Part shown: positions 36,790-61,200 of the stretch, piece after piece
Position numbering within the stretch: the first letter of the stretch is position 1
Layout of the letters: each line of letters starts with the position of its first letter
NCBI GenBank assembly: GCA_039000515.1
Contig: JBCFYV010000001.1
Location: forward strand, 58,703,234-58,767,233
Length of the DNA stretch: 64,000 bases
Reading direction: 5' to 3'
Origin: Timema cristinae
Taxonomy: Eukaryota > Arthropoda > Insecta > Phasmatodea > Timematidae
Notes under the pieces: model-generated
Seen by the model: the letters and a program-made list of their open reading frames with translations, nothing else
What the model was told of the DNA's origin: nothing
Databases searched by the model: none
Position numbers and translations under genes: made by a program

Positions 36790-38130
36790 TCTACATTCAA
36801 ATAAATAATCATCATCATTGCCATGAACTGTTTCCAGCCTGTGGCCGGGTCTGTTTAGTAAAATGCCTTCATCTCATTCTGTCCTTCCACCATTCTTCCT
36901 CCTGCACTCTCTTCCACTCTCCTCTCACACGCTTGCTGCTGCTATCTGTTCCATATCTTCCTAGGTCTTCCTTGCGGTCTCTTCCTCTATCCTCATTACG
37001 TGTCCATACCATCTCATCCTAGCTTCCTCTACTATCTCATGTACCTCCTGTACCGCAACTCTAGAACTTATATCTTCATTCCTAATCCTATATCTTCTGG
37101 TGACAGGTAGCATGCTACTCAAAAACTTCATTTCCATGGCTTCCACTTTCCTTGTTTCTCTTTTATCCAATGTCCAAGTTTCCACTGCATGGGCATGAAG
37201 TATGCTCTATACAGCACTTCCTTACACTTTAGAGGCACTTCTCTTTTCATTAGTAGGTCTATTACACACCTGTAGAAAACCTCTCCCTGCTGCCCTCGTC
37301 TCACTATATCGTCTCTCCTGCCTCCTTTTGCCTCAATCACACTACCCAGATACTTCACACTCTGCTTCTTTCACATATACTCCATCCAGTTTTATCACCT
37401 TTCTTGGCTTTGGTCTCTGCCTTGTTATCACCCTCACTTAACTTCAAGTCATCTGCAAAAATGATTGCTTTCATTTTATCCTCCCTCAATTTCCTGCCAC
37501 TCTATTTATCATCATTTCCATCACCAATACAAAAGTAATCGTGAAATGGTACTTCCCTGCTTGACTCCATTTTTTAATTGGAGCCACTCTGTCCCCCCTC
37601 TTTCTGTCTTTACACAACTCACATTATTATCATACATATTCATTACTCTCCTAACCACTCTTCTTTCTACTCCAGCCTCCTCCATTGCTTTCCATACTTT
37701 CTTTCAATCCACACTATCATAGGCTTTTTATACATCCACAAATGGCATTAACAGATCCTTCCCAAACACATATGTCTTTTCCATCAACTGTCCAATTCCA
37801 AATATTAAATCTTTCGTCGACCTCTTCTCTATGAACCCATGTTGCTCCTCTCTCCATATTCCATTCACGCTATTCCTCATTCTCCTTTCCAGAAGCTTTT
37901 TGTAAATTTTCATGCATTGACACATCAGTGTTATGCCTCTATTTTTTTCACACCTCTTCTAATCTCCTTTCTTGAATATTAGTAATATAATACCTTTTGC
38001 CCAATCCTCTGGCACTTTATTCTCCCTCCACACTGCCGTTGCTACTCCATACCACCACTGGTGATCCATTTCTCCTGCTGCTTTTATCATTTCCACCTTG
38101 AGTTTGTCCACTCCTGGTGTCAAATACATA
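36790..38130 (-). pseudogene. LINE reverse transcriptase remnant, C-terminal two thirds
   Basis: On the - strand the blocks run from 38130 down to 36960. They are VDKLKVEMIKAAGE and VPEDWAKGIILLIFKKGD (RT start); MKIYKKLLERRMRN, EEQHGFIEKRSTKDLIFGI and LLMPFVDV (palm, with the GF.KRST box); then KYLGSVIEAKGGRRDDI and VLYRAYFMPMQWKLG; and last RWYGHVMRIEEE, the usual 'RWyGHV.R' tail of RTE/jockey-like LINEs. Frameshifts separate all blocks. The 3' end near 36805 reads into CAATGATGATGATTA, a short-repeat tail as LINEs often have. Likely a different family from 4200-5080. Confidence 0.8.
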
Positions 38131-39663
38131 CTATTTAACATAAATATAATATGTTCTAGATAACTTACACACATTTCTTGTAAGATTAGAGAGAAATATT
38201 TTAACCTTTGTGTTGTTGATAATGTTTGTAAAAACTTTATATTGCTAGTTTCAATTAAGATTAACTTTGTTTTCATCTAATTGTTTGATTGATTGATTGA
38301 TTTTTCATTAGGTTTTTCTACTAGCAATTCAAGTAAAATGTGATGGGTCTATAGTGCAATGAAAATTCTTATTTAGGCATGAAAATCAAATATCATAATA
38401 TTGTATGTGGAGACGTGTCAATATATTTGGTGCTAGTAACCGTTTCTGGGTGATTGTTCTGAATGTGTAAAGTCAGCAGCTTTTAGTTTTTGTCAAACTG
38501 GACAAACTCTCTATGTATATAAACTACTGAATATGAGTAGTTTTTTTAAAAAAAGTTTTCATTGATGAATTGAAGTGTCTGACATTATCTGTAAATACGT
38601 ATAGCTCACTAATTACAATTTCACAAATAAGTTTTTGGTATGAATTAGAATATTATGTTGATATAGTTTAGCAATTAAACTCAAACCATGTGGTAGACCT
38701 TGAATATTGACTTTCATTTTGGTATTTTGATGAATAACTTAGATTGTAAAGGATATAAATAAAAAGTTATTAGCATGAATCAATAAATTAAATATTTATT
38801 CAAAAGTGGCATGAGAAGGTGTTATAAACTCTTGACTATCTAGTATTCTATAAAATAGTTACAATGTCAGTAAATCCTTTGATTAAGTAAAGATAAAGGC
38901 TATACTTTATAAAACATGTTCTGGTTTCAGCTAAGAATTTTTCACATACAAAGGGAAAGTGAAAAAAGGCAAAATCAAAGATTAATTTTTCTTAAATTCT
39001 ATTATAAATTCAGCCAAATATATAAACAATGTTGAAATAAAATAAAAAAATTAAGAGATTTTAAGTCATTATAAATGACACAGCAGGACAAATAATACTG
39101 AAAATATTCCACATTTTGTTAAGTTTCTTATACCTTCATACATTTTTTTTTTAAGTTTATTGTTTTCGGTTTGCTTTAGAATGTTTTTAAGACAGGAAAA
39201 CACAATTGTATGATGACATTACAAAGCTTTGAACATTTTAAGTGTTAACGTTTTTGAGGTTCTAAGCTCACAGCATTGGTGAGTTCCTTGGTTTGTCATT
39301 ACTTTTTAGAGGGAAATTATTTCGTATTTTGATTAGTTTTACATTTACGTGCATAATATTTGTACCTTATAAAGAAAAATATTTGTTACAAAGCAATGAT
39401 ACGACTTAAATATGACCACAAAATTGGAAATGTGTTTCTACTAAAGTTAAGTTAAGAAAAGTTCTAGCTACTTAAAATAATCAGATTATATGGCTCACTT
39501 AAATAAAAAGGGTTATGTGAAAGTAGATTTTATATTGCTGATTATTTCTTAGTATATTAAAGTCTTGAATTATTGATAGCATTTTAGTAGATATGCTGTA
39601 TTGTATACTACAGTAGGGCCAGCTTCTCGGTGCTCTGCTAATATCACATTTAATTAAATACAG
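38131..39663. other. AT-rich intergenic DNA, nothing recognised
   Basis: No coding signal; a TTGATTGATTGATTGA run at about 38285-38300. Confidence 0.5.
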
Positions 39664-44106: not shown

Positions 44107-45279
44107 AACAGGAGATTTTGTTCATCTGTTTGGATAATAAAACACCTTTATGTTCTATTAAGTTCTGATTTTTCTTATTACTTTTTTTTGGGGGTAAATG
44201 TGGACAGCAACATATAAATTTGATTTAAAGAAATAATAAGTAGGTGGCTCAGTTCAGTAAACATTTTACTGCAAAGATTTAAAAGTATCATATGGGGCCA
44301 AATTACGCATTCACATTTACCCCAACATTTGGGGTAAATGTGAACAGTATATAAAACCCAATTTTTTTTTCACTTCGGAATAGTCATAAATTATTTATAA
44401 AAGGTTCACTGATTCTATTTATGCCTAAACATACATAAATTTATCATTTTTTTTTTAATCTAAACAAGGCTAAACAAAAAGTCAGTAAAAACTGTTCACA
44501 TTTACCCCGACTGACCCTATAATAAAACAAGGTACCTAAATCTATTACATTTGTTTGAACGGCAAGGCCATAGTTGAAAGAGATTGGGGGTTCAACCCCC
44601 CCACCCACCAAAAATTTTATGAACAAATATAAATGGCTTTATTTATGGTTTAAATCGGGGTCAAACCTTAAATCTTGCGAACTACACGGCCTCAGAAGGC
44701 GCCAAGAGGGAAAAGGATTTTTTTTTTTAAAGGTGAATATTTATTAGAGAAAATGTTAAGAAGAAACATCAATATATAAATAAAGACAGTAAGGTCAAAT
44801 CTTTGCGTGGTTGGCGATATAACACCCCTTTCCCATTCAAATGGACTGGTCCGTCAACTGGTGCCAACGCCATGCCCACAATCACTCCTCTTGGGTCTTT
44901 TTTGTATCATGTGGGAGACATTCCCTAAATCTAATTGTAAACGATGCTGGCCTGTCCTGCACCCTTGCAGTAGAATTTTTTAGTAACATTTAAGAAGTGC
45001 ATAAATTATGTTCAGCATCGCGGTCATATTGTTTCATAAGATGGACTTGTTAGTTATTGATTCAAAACATGGCTTCTTATATGTCTGTGCCTATATAATG
45101 TGTGTCTATGTTGTTGTTTTTTAATTATATGTTCTTTGTCTTTTTTGTTTTGTTAATTGTCAGCATTTTTGTGGCTGCTAAAAATGACAAATTAAATAGT
45201 GTTTATCCACAATGCTTCTTTATCTTTACTTAAATATTACATCAAATTTATTTACGTCTGATAGACGGTAAGTGACATT
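44107..45279. other. spacer before the BEL/Pao element, possible LTR remains
   Basis: Three versions of the phrase GGGGTAAATGTG occur (44190-44205, 44333-44346, and reverse at about 44496-44507), outlining a small imperfect inverted repeat. The stretch 44800-45279 may include the left LTR of the following retrotransposon, but I could not define LTR ends because no right LTR remains. Confidence 0.35.
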
Positions 45280-46361
45280 ATGGCGACCGTGACAGGTTGT
45301 ATAGATGGAGATAAAGAGTTGCTGTTGTTTAAAAGGAAAAAGGCCGTCATTAGAGCTTCTTTCGCGAAGATTGTGAAAACTACAACAGATCTGTTTTCAG
45401 TTAATGGTGAGAAGGACTTAGGGGCCATTGAAACAAACCACCAGCTGTTGCAAGGAAAATTAACTGAGCTTGCAAACCTAGATGAGCAAATATTGAATAG
45501 CCTGCTTGAAAGTGATGCATTGGAAAATGAATTTAGTGCCGAAATAGCTAGTGCGGATGAATACAAAGCTAATTGGGCAAATATTTGTATTCATTTAGGC
45601 AGATTTAAGGTGGTAAATGATACCGATGCAGAGTCCGCATCCAGTATTCAAACCGATTATAGAGGTAAGCATTGTTCAAAAAGTAAGTGGAAATTCCCCA
45701 AGATCAAATTTAAGAAATATGGGTTGACATAACAGAATGGTTGAGTTTTTGGAGCCAATTCGCTAAAATTGATGAAGATGAGGATTTAGATGCAGCCGAA
45801 TTCCAGTATTTGATTCAGGCCCCTTTAACTAGTTCAAAGGCTCGAGAAATGGTCGAAAGTTTTCCTCGGACTCGATAAAATTATCCTAAGGTTATACAAA
45901 GTTTGAGATCTCGTTTCGGATGCGATGATTTATTGGTTGAAGTTTATGTGCGAGAACTATTGAAGCTGACTCTTCAGAATTTGTCAGATGGGATGCTGTT
46001 ATCGACTATGTATGGCCGTTTGGAAACTCAGCTGAGAGCACTTGAGACTTTGGGAGTCACCTCTGATAAGTATGAGGCAATGTTATACCCGATGGTTGAA
46101 TCTTGTTTAACGGAAGATTTAATCCGTGCTTGGAAACGTAGTGGTTCTTCAGGTCAAGGTGAGAGGCAGTTGCAGAGGCTAATGGACTTTCTCCTGAGGG
46201 AAGTCGAACAAGAAGAGCGCATCTGTCTTGCGGTAAAAGGTTTTAATATCAGTGGTGGAGAGGAAGTTTTAAAAGGTAAGAGGAGTAATATCCCCAGCTA
46301 TGGAGAAACAAAGGTATCTACAGTAGCCGCATTAGTAGATACAAGAAATAGGCCTAGTTAA
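45280..46361 (+). pseudogene. gag: BEL/Pao gag region
   Basis: The first frame (45280-45732) has a helical NHQLLQGKLTELANLDEQIL segment, as in the N-terminal gag of BEL/Pao. It ends at TAA and the reading continues in other frames. The second frame (45903-46361) has YGRLETQLRALETLGVTSDK and LYPMVESCLTEDLIRAWKRS, the well-known 'LRaLesLGv' gag segment. The interval 45732-45903 carries matching text (AARFQYL-type segment) with a frameshift. Confidence 0.85.
45281..45296 (+). promoter_or_regulatory. possible primer-binding-site motif
   Basis: TGGCGACCGTGACAGG, a TGG-initiated string at the junction to the coding region, is reminiscent of primer-binding sites of insect BEL elements. It overlaps the apparent gag ATG (45280), so the true gag start may be further on. 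No proof without the LTR end. Confidence 0.3.
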
Positions 46362-46370
46362 AACACTTCA

Positions 46371-46889
46371 ATGTGTATATTTTTTAACGCATCACATTTT
46401 TCTGTAGATTGTTTTAAAGTCAAAAAATTGACCATAGATGAGAAGCTTAAAATTATTGGGCAGAGTCGTTGTTTTGTTTGTCTGAAAGGTGGACACATTG
46501 CAAAGAGATGTAAACTAAAGTGTTTGATCTATGATGGTAAACACAGTATTCTACTTTGTCCCAAACTAGAAACTAGTGTTCTTAAGTCTGGGGATAAGGA
46601 CAATTTGAAGAAAGACTTACCTGAAAGTACAAGGGTTCCTGTGGAGAATACATTAGCAAATAATTCTTGCTCTGAAGTACTTCTTCAAACTCTTACTGTA
46701 CAGTTAAAAAGGAAAAGGGGTAATCGAAATGGTCGAGCTCTGATAGACACGGGATCCCAGACATCATACATTCTGAAGGAAGTGGTAGGACAAATGGGAT
46801 ACACATCAATAGGAGAAGAACGTATTCAGCATGCTTTGTTTGGAGGAAGCCAGTCAGATGAAGTTTCAAACAATCGTTTTCAAATCTAG
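46371..46889 (+). pseudogene. BEL/Pao zinc knuckle and aspartic protease region
   Basis: CFVCLKGGHIAKRC is an intact CCHC knuckle (C-x2-C-x4-H-x4-C). The second Cys/His motif that usually follows is damaged: CLIYDGKHSILLC has Tyr where the second Cys belongs. RALIDTGSQTSYIL is the protease with Asp-Thr-Gly. The frame ends at a stop at 46887; the rest of the protease (46890-47140) is in broken frames. Confidence 0.88.
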
Positions 46890-47144
46890 TTGGTAAACAT
46901 CAAAAACCGTTAAGTATGCGACTTTTAAGTTATTTATTATGACAAAATATGTTGTTCTGTGCCTTCCGCGAGAAAATATTTGTGTCAGAGAGAACTACAA
47001 CTGTTGGGTATAGAAATAAATTATGAGGTTGGACTGGTCGAAGTTTTTATAGAGGCTAATTTTGCGAGGAAAATACTCACAGGTGAAAGAGTCGTTCTTA
47101 AATGTGGTTTGGTAGCTGTGAACACCTATTTAGAATGAACGCTA

Positions 47145-48237
47145 TTGGGCGGGGTTCCATGTAAGAAGTCACTTTCTCATACCATGACCATAACTTCTTT
47201 GTTTGATAAAGATATGCCAATTACCACATTCTGGGATCTTGATGTTCTGGGAATCGAGAACCCAGAGAAGCGAAGGACAAAGGCTGAAAGAGAAAGAGCA
47301 ACATTAGAACATTTTAAACAACCTGTCAAACGGGATATGGATTGTACTTACATGGGTGAACTTCCATGGGTGGATGGACGCTCCCCCCCCCCCTCTCACT
47401 TCAAATTTCTTAATGGCTCAGAAGCGTCTGGAAACAACGTTCCGGAAACTGAAATCTCTTGAAGTAGAAAGAGCCTAAACTAAAGGTGTTTGAAGAGTGG
47501 AAGAGAGAGGGAATCATAGAAGAAGTGTTTAATGCTAAGTGTAATGAGGGACATTATCTTACCCACCAACCAGTGATCAAGGAACAGGGTACCATGAAGA
47601 TTCGTCCCGTGTTTGATGCCTCAGCAAAGATCAATTTCTGTCCTTCGCTGAATGATTGCTTAGAGGAAGGGCCGAACTTGATTGAGCGTATTCCATCTCT
47701 TCTGCTTCACTTCAGAGTGGGAGCTATTGGTATTATTGCAGATATAAAGAAAGATTTCTTGCAGATTGGACTTTGTGAACGAGATCGAGATTTCGTACGG
47801 TTCTTGTGGGAAACACCAAATGGGGAAAGCATAGTCCTAAGACATGCACGTGTGGTTTTCAGTGTTTCACACAGTCCTTTTCTGTTAGGAGCTGTCATTG
47901 AACACCATCTAGACTAGCTCTTGAGAGATTATGAAAATAACGCTTTTGGGACTAGCATGTATTCCCAGAAAACGATTAAAAAATGCAGAAGGGTTTTTAT
48001 GTAGACAATTGTGTCTCGAGTATAGACGAGGTGAGCGAGCTATATCAGTTTATGACAAAATCAACTGCTTTGTTGCTTGAAGCAAAAGTTGTGCTGAGAG
48101 GATGGGAATATTCTAGCTCTGAAGTTGACAATAATGAAGTGTCAACTGTTTTAGGTCTGCAGTTGAGACGTGGAACTGATATGTGGGCCATCAATTCAGC
48201 CTGTATTTCTCTCATTGATTTTCAGAGTGTAACTTAG
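47145..48237 (+). pseudogene. pol: BEL/Pao reverse transcriptase region
   Basis: Three frames. 47145-47462 has TFWDLDVLGIENPEKR and GELPWVDG, the RT-leading segment. 47486-47917 has KIRPVFDASAKINFCPSLND, LIERIPSLLLHFRVGAIGII and ADIKKDFLQIGL (first catalytic Asp kept, though the usual A-F is D-F). 47983-48237 has FYVDNCVSS where a catalytic YVDD is expected, so the second Asp is Asn. Stop and frame breaks occur at 47463-47485 and 47918-47982, and a run of nine C at about 47383 shifts the frame region. Confidence 0.9.
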
Positions 48238-48379
48238 AGAACAATTTTGTCTATTGCTCATAAATTGTATGACCCAATTGGTTTCACAGCTCCTGTAACA
48301 TTGATCCCGAAACTGTTGATTCAACAGAGGTGCGCCTCCAAGTTGGGCTAGGATGAAGAAGTTCATACGAAAGAAAAGA

Positions 48380-48870
48380 AGAGGTTTGTAAAATGGACTA
48401 AGGGACTTCAATGTCCAAACAAAATTGAAATTCCCAGGAGAACGCGAAGAATAGTCTTCATACGTTCTGCGATGCCAGTCAAGATGCATATGGTGCTGTT
48501 GTGTATTTGAGATCGGAAACTGAACTTTGCATTAAAGTTCAACTTGTTCAGGCTAAGAACAGGGTCGCACCTATCAAGAAGACCACTATACCACTTCTGG
48601 CGCTAGACTGTTTTCCTCCATAGTGGAACATTTAGATTTGATTGGGTCGCACTTCTGTTTCTGGAGTGATCCAAGTATAGTTTTAGCGTGGATACAAAGA
48701 GAGGAGAAATGGGATACTTTTGTGCGTAATAGGGCTCAAGAGATTAAACGATTGATGGCAAAAGAAGACTGGCGCCACGTTCCAGGTCCACTTAACCGAG
48801 CAGATCTAGCCAGTCGAGGATGCTCTGCTAAGAATTTGATGCAGATGAGCTGGTGAGAGGTGCCTGAATG
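48380..48870 (+). pseudogene. BEL/Pao RNase H region
   Basis: Frames read [19 protein letters not shown] (decayed start with a frameshift: VFxDASxxAYGA is readable across frames near 48455-48500) and FWSDPSIVLAWIQREEKWDT, then WRHVPGPLNRADLASRGCSA. These are the usual 'fwtDSxivLaWi' and 'WrhVPgxxNpADlaSRG' blocks of BEL/Pao RNase H. The domain is split over frames. Confidence 0.85.
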
Positions 48871-48990
48871 GCTAAAGCTGCCTCCAGATCAATGGCCTAT
48901 GGAAGTTGTTTCTGCTGATGAAGAAGTTGTCTACCAGGAAAAAAGAAAAGGTGCGGTTACGACTCTACCAAATGTTAACACCGATAGTGA

Positions 48991-50090
48991 GTGGTATTAC
49001 CGATTCTTCTCTCAGTACCATGGGTGCTAAGATTCATTTGTAATTGCATAAACCAATCTAAGACAAGGGGATATCTTAGTGCCATTGAAGTGGATGAGGC
49101 CGAAGTCCTTGTCATTAGATTTATTCAGAAAGAATCTTTTCAAGACTCTAAATATGAACATGTCAAGTCACTGAATTTATTTGTGGACGTCAAAGATGTT
49201 CTACGTCTGAAAACACGAATATCGGAACCGGAGGATGTGTCAGATCTCAGATATCCAACCTTATTGCCTTCTAATCATCCAGTGGTCTTCAGATTGATTC
49301 ATGAAACACATGTCAAGGCAAACCATGTGGGAGTGCAGGGTCTTTTGAGTTTACTTAGAGAGAGGTTCTGGATTGTAAAGGGTAGGAGAACCATTCGTTC
49401 TGTTGTTATGAAGTGCACTGTGTGCAAACGATTTGCATTCACACATCTTTATTGGTCTGTGCCACCATTACCTGAAGACAGAGTGCGTGACACCATAGTG
49501 TTTGAAGTCACAGGAGTGGATCTGGCGGGTCCACTTTACTTACGAGATGGAAGAAAAGCCTGGACATGCCTTTTTACGTGTGCAGTGTATTGTGTTGTCC
49601 ACCTGGAAATAGTATCTGCATTGTCATCGGATGCCTTCATACAGGCCCTGAGGAGATTCGTGGCTCGATGTGGAAGACCGTCTGCCATATACAGTGATAA
49701 CGGGACTAACTTAGTAGGTACAGCCAATGGTTTTTCACAATTGGACTGAGAAAAGATTAGATTAATGCTTTCAGCTCAACACAACGAATTGTTTGGAAAT
49801 TAAATCCTCCTGCTACTCCATGGTGGGAGTGCCTTATTGGTATGATGAAATCCTTGCTTTTGAGAATACTTGGAAGAGCCTGGCTGACTTTTAAGGAACT
49901 GACAACTGTGCTATGTGACTGTGTGGCTATAATTAATTAACGACCTCTGACCTATATATCAGATGATCCTGACAGCCTGACTCCATTGACACCGGCCTTA
50001 TTTCTTCAGGTCTTCAAAGAAGTAGGAATACCTGATTGTGGCCAATTGGGAACAACTGATCTGAAGAAGAGGTCAAGAGTAAGGGAGAAG
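48991..50090 (+). pseudogene. BEL/Pao integrase region
   Basis: The longest uninterrupted part (252 codons, 48991-49749). It has an H2C2 finger (HETHVKANHVG, then CTVCKRF), VTGVDLAGPLYLRDGRKAWT with the first catalytic Asp, CAVYCVVHLEIVSALSSDAF, and RPSAIYSDNGTNLVGTA with the second Asp. A stop (49747-49749) follows GFSQLD. In another frame 49795-50090 reads WKLNPPATPWWECLIGMMKS and DSLTPLTPALFLQVF, including the third acidic region, before the element is cut at 50090. Confidence 0.9.
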
Positions 50091-53740: not shown

Positions 53741-56660
53741 AGCTTAACACTTAAGATTTATTAGGCACAAAGTACAGTACAGTTTAAATCAATTAGAACT
53801 TTCATCTACGATATCTAAACATTATATCTTTTACTATACTCACTAGACTATTATTTATCATCATGTTCATCAAAGTTTAAAGGCGTTTGCTTAGTTAATA
53901 TTAATTACCTTAGTTCAGTCATTTATTATCTTAAAAAAACACAAGCAAAGTTCAGTCATTTATTACCTTTAAAAATTAGCTTAGTACAGCAAAGTTTGAC
54001 CATTAATTACCTTAAAAAACACACAGTCCATTAATTACATTGGCTAAATTGCTTAGTTAGTGACCGGATTACTAATATTTTTTAGAATTAAACATAGAAC
54101 TATATCAAACTAAATATTTCATGAAAGACCCTCTGCATTCATCCCTACAACCAGTAGCTTTTTTTTTACATCAGAGCGGTTCATATAATTAAAGCAAAAA
54201 AACTTTTTTATTTTAATACAGAGCAATTGTACAATTTTTTAATGAAGCTTATCGCTTAATTATCTTTAAATGAAGCTGGATTATGAAGAAGTTAACAATA
54301 TTTTAAAAAAAAAATCAGTTACTTCATTCGAATATTGAATTAGCCGAAGTTCAAACAATCTTAATTACCTATAAATGAATTACCTTTAAATGAGAATGGA
54401 TTATGACAAAGTTAACAATATTTTTTTAAAAAATCAGTTACTTCATTTGAATATTGAATTAGGCAAAGTTCAAACAATCTTAATTACCTTTAAATGAGGC
54501 TGGATTATGACAAAGTTAACAATATTTTTCTAAAAAAACAGTTACTTCATTTGAATATTGAATTAGCCAAAGTTCAAACGATCTTAATTGCCTTTTCATT
54601 AATTCTTTTACAAGATTCATACATTTAAAAGTTAATTACATTAAACATTTATTTCCTACGGATGCAATTAATCAGGAAAATTCTGATGAGTAAGAATGTG
54701 TACCAATCAGCTTAACACTTAAAGATTTATTAGGCACAAAGTACAGTTTAAATCAATTAGAACTTTCATCTACAATATTTAAACATTATATCTTCTACTA
54801 TACTCACTAGACTATTATTTATCATCATGCTCATCAAAGTTTAAAGGCGTTTGCTTAGTTAATATTAATTACTTTAGTTCAGTCATTTATTTCCTTAAAA
54901 CACAGTTCGACCATTAATTACCTTAAAAACACAAAGTCCATTAATTACTTTTTTAACCAAAGTTCAAACAATCTTAATTACCTTTAAATGAATTACCTTT
55001 AAATGAGGCTGGATTATTAATTACCTTTAAATGAATTACCTTTAAATGAGGTAGGATTATGAAGAAGTTAACAATATTTTTCTAAAAAAAATCAGTTACT
55101 TCATTTGAATATTGAATTAGGCAAAGTTCAAACAATCTTCCTTAAAACAAAGTTCGACCATTAATTACCTTAAAAACACAAAGTCCATTAATTACCTTTT
55201 TAACCGAAGTTCAAACAATCTTAATTACCTTTAAATGAATTACCTTTAAATGAGGCAGGATTATTAATTACCATTAAATGAATTACCTTTAAATGAGGTA
55301 GGATTATGAAGAAGTTAACAATATTTTTCTAAAAAATCAGTTACTTCATTTGAATATTGAATTAGCTAAAGTTCAAACAATCTTCCTTAAAACAAAGTTC
55401 GACCATTAATTACCTTAAAAACACAAAGTCCATTAATTACCTTTTTAACCAAAGTTCAAACAATCTTAATTACCTTTAAATGAATTACCTTTAAATGAGG
55501 CAGGATTATTAATTACCTTTAAATGAAACACAAAGTCCATTAATTACCTTTTTGACCAAAGTTCAAACAATCTTAATTACCTTTAAATGAATTACCTTTA
55601 AATGAGGTAGGATTATTAAGAAGTTAACAATATTTTTCTAAAAAAATCAGTTACTTCATTTGAATATTGAATTAGCTAAAGTTCAAACAATCTTCCTTAA
55701 AACAAAGTTCGACCATTAATTACCTTAAAAACACAAAGTCCATTAATTACCTTTTTAACCAAAGTTAAACAATCTTAATTACCTTTAAATGAGGCAGGAT
55801 TATTAATTACCTTTAAATGAATTGCCTTTAAATGAGGTAGGATTATGAAGAAGTTAACAATATTTTTCTAAAAAATCAGTTACTTCATTTGAATATTGAA
55901 TTAGCCAAAGTTCAAACAATCTTAATTACCTTTTCATTAATTCTTTTACAAGATTCATACATTTAAAAAGTTAATTACATTAAACATTTATTTCCTACGG
56001 ATGCATAGAACTTTCATCTACGATATCTAAACATTATATCTTCCACTATACTCACTAGACTATTATTTACCATCATCCCCATCAAAGTTTAAAGACGTTT
56101 GCTTAGTTAATATTAATTACCTTAAAAACAAAGTCCATTAATTACCTTTAAAAATTAGCTTAGTACAGCAAAGTTCGGTCATCCAATGTTCAAACAATCT
56201 TAATTACCTTTAAATGAGGCTGGATTATGAAGAAGTTAACAATATTTTTCTAAAAATCAGTTACTTCATTTGAATATTGAATTAGCCAAAGTTCAAACAA
56301 TCTTAATTACCATTAAATGAATTACCTTTAAATGAGGATGTAACAAGGAGATTGGTTAAATACACTCTCTTCATCTCCTCCCCTAGTAGGATCGTAAAAG
56401 TTCTGCATGTGTAGATTTAAACCATTCCTAAATCAGTTACTTAATTTGAATATTGAATTAGCCAAAGTTCAAACAATCTTAATTACCTTTAAATGAGGCT
56501 CGATTAAGAAGAAGTTAACAATATTTTTCTAAAAAATCAGTTACTTCATTTGAATATTGAATTAACCAAAGTTCAAACAATCTTAGTTACCTTTAAATGA
56601 ATTACCTTTAAATGAGGCTGTAACAAGGAGATTGGTTAAATACACTCTCTTCAACTCCTC
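53741..56660 (+). repeat. AT-rich higher-order repeat array
   Basis: Short units built on AATTACCTTTAAATGA, GAGGCAGGATTATTAA, GAAGAAGTTAACAATATTTT, CAGTTACTTCATTTGAATAT and CAAAGTTCAAACAATCTT repeat many times. A longer marker (TAGAACTTTCATCTACGATA followed by TCTAAACATTATATCTT) recurs at 53794, 54758 and 56006, so larger blocks of about 964 and 1248 bp are themselves repeated. Another marker (ACAAGATTCATACATTTAAA) is at 54610 and 55948. No coding sequence. Confidence 0.92.
56342..56440 (-). pseudogene. truncated second copy of the 3' end of the neighbouring ORF
   Basis: The sequence from ACAAGGAGATTGGTTAAATA to ACCATTCCT is almost identical to 56625-56707. It contains the last codons and stop of the minus-strand ORF that ends at 56663 (TCGGATCGTAAAAGTTCTGC there, TAGGATCGTAAAAGTTCTGC here). 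It breaks off after about 15 codons into CAGTTACTTAATTTGAATAT of the array. Confidence 0.85.
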
Positions 56661-56662
56661 CC

Positions 56663-57178
56663 CTAGTCGGATCGTAAAAGTTCTGCATGGGTAGATTTAA
56701 ACCATTCCTTAAGTAGTAGAACATTTTCCGTAGCACAAGAATAGAAGCTAGCGTAATGAGTAGTGCACTTGTTTACGTTGTACAGTTTTTTTAGCTTTCT
56801 CAGGGAAGGACATCCAAGTTCGCCTAACTCGAAAAACTCATACTTGTCAGTATCGGAACCTATGAGTTTCTCTACCCAAGTTAACTTCTCCGCTCCTTTG
56901 ATATAGATCGATACTCGTGAGCCGTACCGTTCTAGATGAGGGATTATGGTGGAACGTAGATTCATATATGGTATATCACCCTCACTCCAAGATAGTCCAT
57001 GATGACGAGTTCTTACCCACTCTATATTTTCCCTAGTCGAAACAGAGAGGTTATCCAACTTACACGGCGAAAGAAACTTATAGTTGATTTCCTCGAAATG
57101 TTCAAAATGTAAAACACTCACCTCTTTGAAAACGAATGATATTTCTTCGCCCGAATATCCTTGCACATCGATTAACAT
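56663..57178 (-). CDS. uncharacterised 171-residue protein, candidate viral or mobile-element gene
   Basis: ATG at 57178-57176 is the first after an upstream in-frame TAG; stop at 56663-56665. I do not recognise the protein for certain. It starts MLIDVQGYSGEEISFVFKEV, two strand-like segments with an Asp in the first. It then has WVRTRHHGLSWSEGDIPYMN, ERYGSRVSIYIKGAEKLTWV and ELGCPSLRKLKKLYNV, with 8 Cys/His after residue 125. This order faintly recalls RNase H-like exonuclease folds, with Gln where Glu is usual; that is inference. Similar 'D-x-Q-G-(F/Y)' proteins occur, from memory, in arthropod repeat-rich DNA. Its codons are richer in G+C and CpG than the flanks. Divergent to 57643-58071. 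Confidence 0.7.
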   Translation of the reverse strand: MLIDVQGYSGEEISFVFKEVSVLHFEHFEEINYKFLSPCKLDNLSVSTRENIEWVRTRHHGLSWSEGDIPYMNLRSTIIPHLERYGSRVSIYIKGAEKLTWVEKLIGSDTDKYEFFELGELGCPSLRKLKKLYNVNKCTTHYASFYSCATENVLLLKEWFKSTHAELLRSD

Positions 57179-57642
57179 AGCGAAGCGCTCTAATACGGAA
57201 AAAAGAAGCTACTGTTTGCCGGGATGAATGCAGATGAGTCCGCCTAGAAGTTCAGATCTATATATAGGGAACGTGAGTATATTGTTCATCTCACGCAGAT
57301 GTTCTCGTGTGAAGCGAGTTATCAAGATTCATGTTACTGATGCGAGATAGCTGCGGGGAGGAAGCTGCTTTGTCATAAACTTAGAAATTCATTTAAAAAA
57401 TCCAGAATCAAGATTCTCTACCCTTCCTCGGAGCATACCTTCCAACCCTCCCGCAGGTTCATAATTCAGGAGCTTGTACCCTCTCCGTCGGGATTCTACA
57501 CTTCACGCGCTCCGGCGTCCGTTCAGTCCGATTAGAATCAGAGGTATTATGCAGCTACAAGTCGGTCATATCAAAGTATTTCAGCAACACGCAACCTGCT
57601 CAGAAGATTAGTCTGACTAATCATGAAATCTCTCTGAGACGC
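57179..57642. promoter_or_regulatory. divergent intergenic region with palindromic TATA box
   Basis: CTATATATAG (57258-57267) is a perfect palindrome and can act as a TATA box either way, 80 bp before the minus-strand ATG and about 375 bp before the plus-strand ATG. About 30 bp downstream on + is TTCATCTCACGCAG, which holds an initiator-like TCA. The region is GC-richer than the arrays. The + frame of the next ORF stays open upstream to a TAA at about 57395 without an ATG. Confidence 0.45.
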
Positions 57643-58071
57643 ATGTGCGGTGACCGTATGATCGTCATCAACGAGAAACAAGACGCCGAACTCAAACGGG
57701 TCAATTATCTAGCACCGAGCTGGACGCGTCTTTGTTATGTGTGGGACCTCATCAATGTTGCCATCAACCACCGGGATATGTGGTCGATAACCGTCACACG
57801 CTATTGCAATGATTTTATCGACACACTCGTCGTGGATGTATGCGACACACTAACAGAATCAGCGGATGTCATCAATCTCGAACAGCCTACAGTAGAAACG
57901 CACATCAGAAACCTGGATCTTATCAGTGCTACATGTTATACATGTCAAGTCGTAGGTTTGGAATATTACTTGCTGGATTGTGAACAAAAAATAATTTTAC
58001 TAATGCATCTAAGAGATACTGTAGAAAAACGTATGAACGAATATATGCGGCATTCCTGTAAAAGTGTATAA
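57643..58071 (+). CDS. uncharacterised 142-residue protein, partner of the divergent ORF
   Basis: Unrecognised. ATG at 57643 was chosen because it is the only in-frame ATG before the conserved-looking core. The frame is open for about 80 more codons upstream (ending KISLTNHEISLRR), so the gene may start in an upstream exon or have lost its start. A separate 20-codon ATG frame (57549-57611, MQLQVGHIKVFQQHATCSED) precedes it. The protein is acidic and mostly helical by eye (NYLAPSWTRLCYVWDLINVA, DTLVVDVCDTLTESADVINL) and has seven Cys; no signal peptide or clear membrane span. AATAAA follows at 58133. CpG-rich codons set it apart from the surrounding DNA. Confidence 0.6.
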   Translation: MCGDRMIVINEKQDAELKRVNYLAPSWTRLCYVWDLINVAINHRDMWSITVTRYCNDFIDTLVVDVCDTLTESADVINLEQPTVETHIRNLDLISATCYTCQVVGLEYYLLDCEQKIILLMHLRDTVEKRMNEYMRHSCKSV

Positions 58072-58132
58072 TAACTATTATGTATGATGTCTGTGAAACC
58101 TTTAATATATATCTGTAAAACCTTTAATTTTT

Positions 58133-58138
58133 AATAAA
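58133..58138 (+). promoter_or_regulatory. polyA signal after the + ORF
   Basis: AATAAA 62 bp after the TAA, followed by a T-rich 'ggttttgtaatatcgtgtttt' stretch, the usual arrangement for cleavage. Confidence 0.55.
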
Positions 58139-58189
58139 TATAGGTTTTGTAATATCGTGTTTTATTCATGCAAAACCTTTCTGTCCCCC

Positions 58190-58700
58190 TCACACGTAAA
58201 TACGTGTCTCGACTTGTCGATCTGTCAAACTGGCACCAAACATTAACAGGGTTAATGACCTCTTGTATTAGCTCACGGTTTTAAGGTCACGATCTATTCC
58301 TGTATTGTTGAGCCGCCAAACTGGCACCTGTCTTCATGGAAAAAAACCCATTGCGACATCATTCAAGGTCGTGTCCTGACTTGTCTTGTCGACCCACCAG
58401 ACTGGTGCCTGTCATCAGGGAAAACCCATTACCACATAGAGGGTGGGGGAGGGGTTGCTACACCAGAAAAACCCATTGCCGAGGGAGGATTACCAGAGTT
58501 AATGACATAGCTCACGGTTTCAAGGTCACGATGTATTCCTGTCATGTCGAGCCACCAAACTGGTGCGCCAATCATCAGGGAAAACCCATTGCGACATAAA
58601 TCAAGGTCACGATATATTCTTGTCCCGACTTGACTTGTTGACCCACCAAACTGACGCCTGTCATCAGGGAAAACCCATTACCACATAGGGGGTGGGGGGA
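58190..58700 (+). repeat. GC-richer higher-order repeat (CATCAGGGAAAACCCATT)
   Basis: Modules TGTCATCAGGGAAAACCCAT, AAGGTCACGATNTATTCCTG, 'gagccaccaaactgg' and ACCACATAGGGGGTGGGG recur in order. Large blocks start near 58198, 58405 and 58640, and the pair 58260-58440 and 58505-58700 are copies of each other. Not protein coding; the 87-codon frame at 58336 is a repeat shadow. Confidence 0.85.
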
Positions 58701-59247
58701 GAAGGGTTGCGACACATACCTCTAAGGAGGGTAGTGAGGGGAAGTGAAAGGGGTTTCAAGGCAGGTTTCACACTCTTCGCTACGCTGCCATCAGGAGAGC
58801 TTCGTGCTCCGTGTTCCTTCTGATGACGATGGAGGAACGCCTGACGCCGTGGACTGCACACATATAAATAAATTAAGAACTCCAACCTACCATCCCAATC
58901 CTACCCAGACATAAATAACCAATGAAAATAAATAAAAAAGCAATGAAAATACATAAATTACCATTGATCACAAATTAAATAGCAATGAGTATACATAAAA
59001 AACAAATAAAAGAATAATACGTATACAAGTACCAACATGTTTGGAACAAGAACCAACATGTCAGGAACACTGAAAAGGGAATCAGGGTTGGGAGATGGGT
59101 TGTGAGATGGGGAGGGGTAAAACCAACAGCCAATCAGAGAGCGAGGGGGGCGTGGTAACGTTATCAAATTCAACCAATCCTGGCCTGTACACAGGTGGGC
59201 CACCCAATTACTTATATGTCCTAGAATCCTAATGTCTCTATTGCTGG
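58701..59247. other. spacer, nothing recognised
   Basis: A GC-richer patch at 58770-58860 reads open on - (73 codons) without motifs I can assign; the rest is AT-rich. Confidence 0.4.
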
Positions 59248-59939: not shown

Positions 59940-61200
59940 GTGAAGTTGGCAGCACCACTAACGGCACAAATTCTGAAACCTATGCCAATATTTAGTGCTG
60001 AATTTGTGCCACAAGAATATCCTATCCCCATAATTTGTGCCGCCATAGTTTTTGTGAAAACTTCAAAAAACTGTGGGTGCTGCCAACTTCACGTAGCAGT
60101 ACCCATAACGGCACAAATTCTGAAACCTATTCCAATATTTAGTGCTGAATTTGTGCCACCAGAATATCCTATCCCCATAATTTGTGCCGCCATAGTTTTC
60201 ATGAAAACACAAAAAAAACAGTGGGTGCTGCTGGCAGCACCCATAACAGCACAAATTCTGAAACCTATGCCAATATTTAGTGCTGAATTTGTGCCACAAG
60301 AATATCCTATCCCCATAATTTGTGCCACCATAGTTTTTGTGAAAACTTAAAAAAAACTCTGGGTTCTGCCAACTTCACGTCTCTAGTAGGCCGTTGTTTC
60401 ATTGCTTTTCACCCTTTCGATACATTATGCTGACCACACGTTTCTCTCTTTGAATGCGTATTCAAAACAGGGGTGGGAAAATGTTTGGTTGTAGAAGTCC
60501 CAATGTCCGAGGTCCGTGAGGTTGGCAACACCACTAACGCATATATTCTGAAACCTATGCCAATATTTTGTGCTGAATTTGTGGCACAATAATATCCTAT
60601 CCACATAATTGGTTCCGCCGTAGTTTTTGTGAAAACTTCAAAAAACTTTGGGTGCTGCCAGCATCACGTAGCAGCACCCATAACGGAACAAATTCTGAAA
60701 CCAAGGCCAATATTTAGTGCTGAATATGTGCCACAATAATATTCTATCCCCATAATTTGTGTCGCCATAGTTTTTGAGAAAACTTAAAAAAAACTCTGGG
60801 TGCTGCCAACTTAACGTAGCAGCACCCATAACGGCACAAATTCTAAAACCTATGCCAATATTTAGTGCTTAATTTGTGCCACAAGAATATACTATCCCCA
60901 TAATTTGTGCCGCAATATTTTTCGTGAAAACACCAAAAAACACAGTGGGTGTTGCTGGCAGTACCCATAACGGCACAAATTTTGAAACCTATGCCAATAT
61001 TTAGTGCCGAATTTGTGCCACAAGAATATCCTATCACCATAATTTGTGCCGCCATAGTTTTCGAGAAAACGCAAAAAAAAAAACGTGGCGGCTGCTGCTG
61101 GCAGCACCCGTAACGGAATTAATTCTTAAACCTTTACTAATATTTAGTGATAAATTTGTGCCGCAAGAATATCTTACTCTAATAATTTTTAACCCCATAG
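59940..61200 (+). repeat. ~145-bp satellite (CGGCACAAATTCTGAAACC)
   Basis: Unit markers (acGGCACAAAttctgaaacc) fall at 59961, 60108, 60246, 60537, 60683, 60831, 60970 and 61113, so periods are 138-148 bp, with one 291-bp gap filled by foreign sequence (60365-60510). Each unit has GCCAATATTTAGTGCTGAAT, TTGTGCCACAAGAATATCCT and ATCCCCATAATTTGTGCC. Because two successive periods are multiples of three, the first units give a 159-codon repeat frame, not a gene. Confidence 0.93.

What the first reader, a model, noticed from the sequence alone, without database searches (positions are those of the whole stretch)
56663..58071. Two intact divergent ORFs of unknown function inside a satellite desert
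Seen: 171- and 142-codon frames, uninterrupted and on opposite strands, share an intergenic region with a palindromic TATA box. The + ORF is followed by AATAAA. Both are richer in G+C and CpG than flanking DNA, and neither is a known transposase or host gene to me. All recognised transposon genes nearby are broken, so intact frames suggest selection or a recent arrival. Inference: a fragment of an endogenised DNA virus or an unclassified mobile element.
Basis: partly seen in the sequence, partly recalled or inferred. Interest (0 to 1): 0.75.

Follow-up and report, generated by a model that had tools for sequence, protein, structure and literature searches.

The report
Divergent orphan gene pair, stick-insect repeat
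Two small uninterrupted genes that point away from a shared control region sit in repeat-rich insect DNA; one belongs to a gene family otherwise seen only in a stick insect, the other has no detected relative, and nothing found shows that they come from a virus.

Summary
Two such frames by chance are unlikely (0 of 5000 local simulations). B is a real protein family: its two reported relatives are uncharacterised Timema shepardi (stick insect) proteins, 77% identical over all 142 residues and 80% over 97, so the host is very probably Timema or close kin. A has no significant relative and no significant codon-position signal. The block is CpG-rich (o/e 1.09-1.24; window median 0.44). A palindromic TATA box has TCATCT at 27 and 29 nt on the two strands, suggesting a bidirectional promoter (noticed first, tested afterwards). 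No transposase, no inverted ends around both genes and no viral relative were found. Amino-acid changes in B fit neutral drift. Best reading: a young piece of a lineage-restricted multicopy element (mobile element, or less likely an endogenous DNA virus) with a divergent two-gene cassette. Origin and function are unresolved; the decisive whole-genome search did not complete (16 tries).

The parts
56663..57178 (-). ORF A, 171 codons; putative protein, no significant relative
   Evidence: P(ORF>=171 in the local 1409 bp)=0.0026; codon-position asymmetry not significant (26% of 841 overlapping comparison windows reach it)
57643..58071 (+). ORF B, 142 codons; member of a Timema protein family with at least three members, predicted mostly helical at low confidence
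   Evidence: 77% identity over 142/142 residues to P0001 and 80% over 97 to P0002, both T. shepardi; codon-position asymmetry reached by 0.8% of 857 overlapping comparison windows; model pLDDT 53
57258..57267 (.). palindromic TATA box (CTATATATAG) of a presumed bidirectional promoter
   Evidence: read directly; TATATATA at 57259
57286..57291 (+). TCATCT, presumed start site for B, 27 nt from the TATA start
   Evidence: only TATA[AT]A[AT]+TCATCT pair (24-33 nt) on this strand of the 64 kb (motif chosen after the fact; the usual arthropod initiator TCA[GT]T[CT] gives no pair here)
57232..57237 (-). TCATCT, presumed start site for A, 29 nt from the TATA start; the first ATG downstream is the start of A
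   Evidence: same caveat
58133..58138 (+). AATAAA, presumed poly(A) signal of B
56600..56712 (-). 3' tail of ORF A and flank, repeated with satellite DNA at 56320-56432 (that copy has an in-frame stop)
   Evidence: 113-bp match, 95.6% identical
57182..57234 (-). leader of ORF A; a diverged copy lies inverted at 54132-54182 (83% over 53 nt)

Best explanation
A young fragment, roughly 1.5 kb, of a lineage-restricted, multicopy element of Timema-like stick insects. It carries two short divergent genes fired from one palindromic TATA box that directs transcription both ways, with starts about 27-31 nt to either side. The leftward transcript encodes protein A behind a leader of about 57 nt without an upstream ATG; the rightward one encodes protein B behind a leader of about 355 nt with five upstream ATGs (unless it is spliced) and ends after AATAAA. 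The pair is more likely a passenger or accessory cassette of a mobile element than host genes, and was later bordered and partly copied by the expanding satellite. Shown: the frames, the TATA/TCATCT anatomy, the CpG contrast, the family of B in T. shepardi, the repeated tail of A. Inferred: promoter use, recency, mobility, host. Protein functions: B a small helical protein; A a mixed alpha/beta protein (both from low-confidence models) that from memory recalls a degenerate RNase-H/DEDD-like nuclease domain, for which the searches gave no support.
For: B has full-length and shorter T. shepardi relatives in the same frame. CpG o/e is 1.09-1.24 in the five 500-bp windows that tile 56751-58250, five of the top six of 255; median 0.44. 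Four pieces of the BEL/Pao-like element score 0.42-0.73. TATA palindrome with the same 6-mer at promoter distance on both strands: P(any shared 6-mer)=0.020, shared 6-mer beginning TCA=0.00035 in 20000 shuffles of the flanks. The first ATG after the presumed minus start is that of A. B has codon-position asymmetry. The tail and the leader of A recur nearby.
Against: No inverted repeat around both genes beyond chance (longest 11 nt, equal to the median of 40 shuffles); the one inverted pair found (54132-54182 / 57182-57234) would enclose A but not B. No transposase in A or B; target-site duplications were not searched systematically, the ends being unknown. No A relative is known from T. shepardi, so the two genes are not shown to travel together. 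A lacks a codon signal. B's differences fit neutral drift (BLOSUM P 0.17-0.26; no stop in 17-20% of runs for the full-length pair). The standard initiator motifs tried gave no pair here. High CpG is not unique: 7 of the 12 windows with o/e of at least 1.0 lie elsewhere, and that CpG decays with age in this host is assumed. No transcript data; copy number in the window's own genome unknown.
Confidence: 0.5

Rival explanations
1. Fragment of an endogenised, undescribed arthropod DNA virus: compact intronless divergent genes with TATA-plus-initiator promoters, integrated recently.
For: Compact divergent arrangement, possible bidirectional TATA core, undepleted CpG, restricted distribution.
Against: No relative in IMG/VR, among phages or at significance in Pfam and PHROGs; of 10 further stretches of the window scanned with Pfam, 2 matched, both retroelement-type domains.
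Confidence: 0.2
2. Young lineage-specific (orphan) host genes sharing a CpG-rich bidirectional promoter, amplified as a small gene family.
For: B relatives reported only from Timema, as predicted proteins; CpG-rich block; intact frames.
Against: One shorter copy and 16-23% amino-acid divergence among the three known B proteins suggest repeat-like turnover; satellite setting.
Confidence: 0.2
3. Only B is a (decaying) gene; A is a chance open frame on the opposite strand.
For: A has no relative and no codon signal.
Against: P(ORF>=171)=0.0026 locally; plausible TATA/TCATCT spacing and first-ATG start.
Confidence: 0.1

Closest known systems
Uncharacterised Timema shepardi proteins A0A7R9BAU3 and A0A7R9BA86
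   Same: Same protein family as B; 77% over 142 residues and 80% over 97; the first has exactly the same length
   Different: Known here only as predicted proteins; their genomic surroundings were not seen, and no A relative was found
Accessory gene pairs of cut-and-paste DNA transposons (e.g. Harbinger-type two-gene elements; recalled)
   Same: Two short divergent genes in a repeat context
   Different: No transposase match and no inverted repeats around both genes
DEDD/RNase-H-fold nucleases (recalled resemblance of A)
   Same: Order of strands and helices in a very poor model (pLDDT 33), judged by eye
   Different: No significant Pfam or PDB match by sequence, none by fold

Membership tests
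Timema B protein family | Significant full-length sequence similarity | tested here: met
   E=1.2e-62, 77% over 100% of the query
DNA transposon | Terminal inverted repeats | tested here: inconclusive
   Around both genes (56561-56760 against 58041-58340) the longest pair is 11 nt, equal to the shuffle median. An inverted pair 54132-54182 / 57182-57234 (83% over 53 nt) encloses A but not B; by eye no direct repeat flanks it
DNA transposon | Transposase domain in the block | tested here: not met
   No Pfam family reaches its cut-off for A or B; two sub-threshold matches for A (E 0.09 and 0.13), neither a transposase
Endogenous DNA virus | Similarity to viral proteins | tested here: not met
   collections thought to be poor in arthropod viruses
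Endogenous DNA virus | Linked viral hallmark genes | tested here: inconclusive
   10 stretches of the window scanned with Pfam: 2 with retroelement-type domains, 8 with none; the rest was not scanned
DEDD/RNase-H nuclease (A) | Significant profile or fold match | tested here: not met
   model too poor to exclude it

The most novel reading that the evidence does not exclude
A previously undescribed two-gene mobile element or endogenous DNA virus of stick insects, driven by one palindromic bidirectional TATA/initiator promoter, with both proteins belonging to no characterised family.
Probability: 0.25. Interest if true: 0.6.

Novelty: new member of a known kind. Interest (0 to 1): 0.38.

Why it matters
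If the pair is a recent invader, Timema, with five parthenogenetic and five sexual species sequenced in one study (PMC8865771, passages seen), would allow its spread and decay to be dated. If it is an endogenous virus it would reveal an unsampled insect DNA virus lineage. As it stands it is a modest lead: one real but uncharacterised gene family and one putative orphan.

Tried and rejected
Homology of A: Pfam (two sub-threshold matches, E 0.09 and 0.13), PHROGs (one at E=0.45), NCBIfam (none), PDB sequences (one at E=1.6), two searches of 5.8 billion proteins (21 candidates, none at E<=1; 2 candidates, none at E<=10), IMG/VR and GTDB contigs (5 and 22 stretches matched a pattern, none confirmed), phages (none). 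B: Pfam and PHROGs (none), NCBIfam (one at E=0.13, far below its cut-off), PDB sequences (3 matches at E>=1.1), IMG/VR and GTDB contigs (4 and 116 stretches matched a pattern, none confirmed), phages (none). Nothing beyond T. shepardi.

tblastn on the fetched loci (64, 75, 195 and 211 of them) gave nothing better than E=0.07. That hit (L094) lies in a contig whose ORFs look phage-like to me, in a frame antisense to a long ORF and away from the motif match; L203 (E=1.1) shares 14 residues in a frame with stops. All rejected as chance.

Structure: A modelled from one sequence, pLDDT 33; B from three, pLDDT 53. Fold searches, A against PDB and BFVD, B against BFVD only, gave no reliable match; the best, E=0.003 for A in BFVD at TM 0.28, was discarded with such a model. 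VIA-align was not used.

The idea that the satellite supplied the C-terminus of A was set aside: the piece 56621-56712 matches only one neighbouring copy in the window, not the other satellite units. A transposon with inverted ends at 54132 and 57234 was set aside but is not excluded: by eye no direct repeat flanks the pair, the arms have diverged to 83%, and it would leave out B.

Literature: 6 searches; two found no paper, the others listed 12 of 39, 5 of 5, 8 of 19 and 3 of 3; titles and starts of abstracts seen, none on this pair and none on methylation-driven CpG loss in Timema. PMC8865771 was seen in 12 of 28 passages.

Full report
Observation. The two frames are exactly where reported. 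A is read leftward from 57178 to 56663, B rightward from 57643 to 58071. Under an order-2 Markov null of the same 1409 bp, frames of at least 171 codons appear in 0.26% of 5000 simulations, of at least 142 codons in 1.3%, and two such frames in none. CpG observed/expected is 1.14 and 1.31 in A and B, 1.02 between them, 0.43 upstream, 0.67 downstream. The five 500-bp windows that tile 56751-58250 are among the top six of 255 overlapping windows, whose median is 0.44; 7 of the 12 windows with at least 1.0 lie elsewhere, so the block is extreme but not alone. Four pieces of the BEL/Pao-like element score 0.42-0.73.

Relatives. B matched two proteins out of nine candidates in a 5.8-billion-sequence database, both from Timema shepardi: 77% identity over all 142 residues, and 80% over 97 residues of a shorter one. 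The host is therefore very probably Timema or a near relative (inference), and the family has at least two members in T. shepardi. The two proteins presumably come from the ten-genome Timema study, whose annotation combined RNA-seq, protein evidence and MAKER and which reports 55 candidate horizontal transfers from non-metazoans; whether the B family is among them was not seen (PMC8865771, passages only). A has no significant relative by any search made.

Is it coding, is it selected? B has codon-position asymmetry that only 0.8% of 857 overlapping comparison windows reach; A does not stand out (26% of 841). Simulating random mutation of B to the observed 33 amino-acid differences from P0001 (1500 runs per setting) gives changes about as radical as those seen (P 0.19-0.26) and leaves no stop in 17-20% of runs; the comparisons with and between the shorter copy give P 0.17-0.25. 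Indels were not modelled and the copies compared were chosen for being open. Purifying selection is thus neither shown nor excluded.

Promoter anatomy. CTATATATAG at 57258-57267 reads the same on both strands. TCATCT begins 27 nt downstream on the plus strand and 29 nt downstream on the minus strand; these are the only such pairs on either strand of the window. Two more standard initiator patterns tried in the same scan, TCA[GT]T[CT] and [AC]CAGT, gave no pair in 56-59 kb. In shuffles of the flanks a shared 6-mer arises in 2.0% of cases and one beginning TCA in 0.035%. The motif was noticed first and tested afterwards, so these values are optimistic. On the minus side the first ATG is that of A; on the plus side five ATGs precede B, so the mRNA of B may be spliced or poorly translated. 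AATAAA follows B by 62 nt; for A the first AATAAA or ATTAAA downstream lies 671 nt beyond the stop, which does not favour a compact A transcript.

Surroundings. The last 15 codons of A and its 3' flank recur with satellite DNA at 56320-56432, where the reading frame has a stop. The leader of A has a diverged inverted copy at 54132-54182 (83% over 53 nt). So parts of this block have taken part in local duplication. No inverted repeat around both genes is better than shuffles; an element with ends at 54132 and 57234, holding A alone, is not excluded.

Viral origin. Six scans of IMG/VR (five for A, one for B), phage records, Pfam, PHROGs and predicted viral structures gave no reliable relative (61, 79; 4; 26; 49, 63). 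These collections are thought to be poor in arthropod DNA viruses, and the structural models are too weak to count against the idea.

Verdict. A real, probably young, divergent two-gene block; B belongs to a family seen here only in Timema, A is a putative orphan. A passenger cassette of an unclassified mobile element is the most economical reading (0.5), with a viral relic and young host genes each at about 0.2. The test that would decide, a search of the window's own genome, could not be run (16 unanswered requests, the last).

Noticed in passing
window 45265-49749 (+): Broken BEL/Pao-like retrotransposon (name recalled from its domains), split into several frames, with DUF1759 and Integrase_H2C2 matches.
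   Followed up: partly
window 54258-56709: Satellite of nested periods (about 58, 104, 119, 245 and 280 bp among others; TRF); the last array includes the tail of ORF A.
   Followed up: partly
window 58242-58715: Diverged direct duplication (about 78% over 238 bp) just downstream of ORF B.
   Followed up: no
window 59949-61173: Tandem array of a 147-bp unit with open frames on both strands.
   Followed up: no
window 58117-58148: Imperfect palindrome (81% over 32 nt) spanning the AATAAA of ORF B.
   Followed up: no
window 37959-38276 (-): 105-codon frame whose end recalls a LINE ORF fragment to the eye; no Pfam match.
   Followed up: partly
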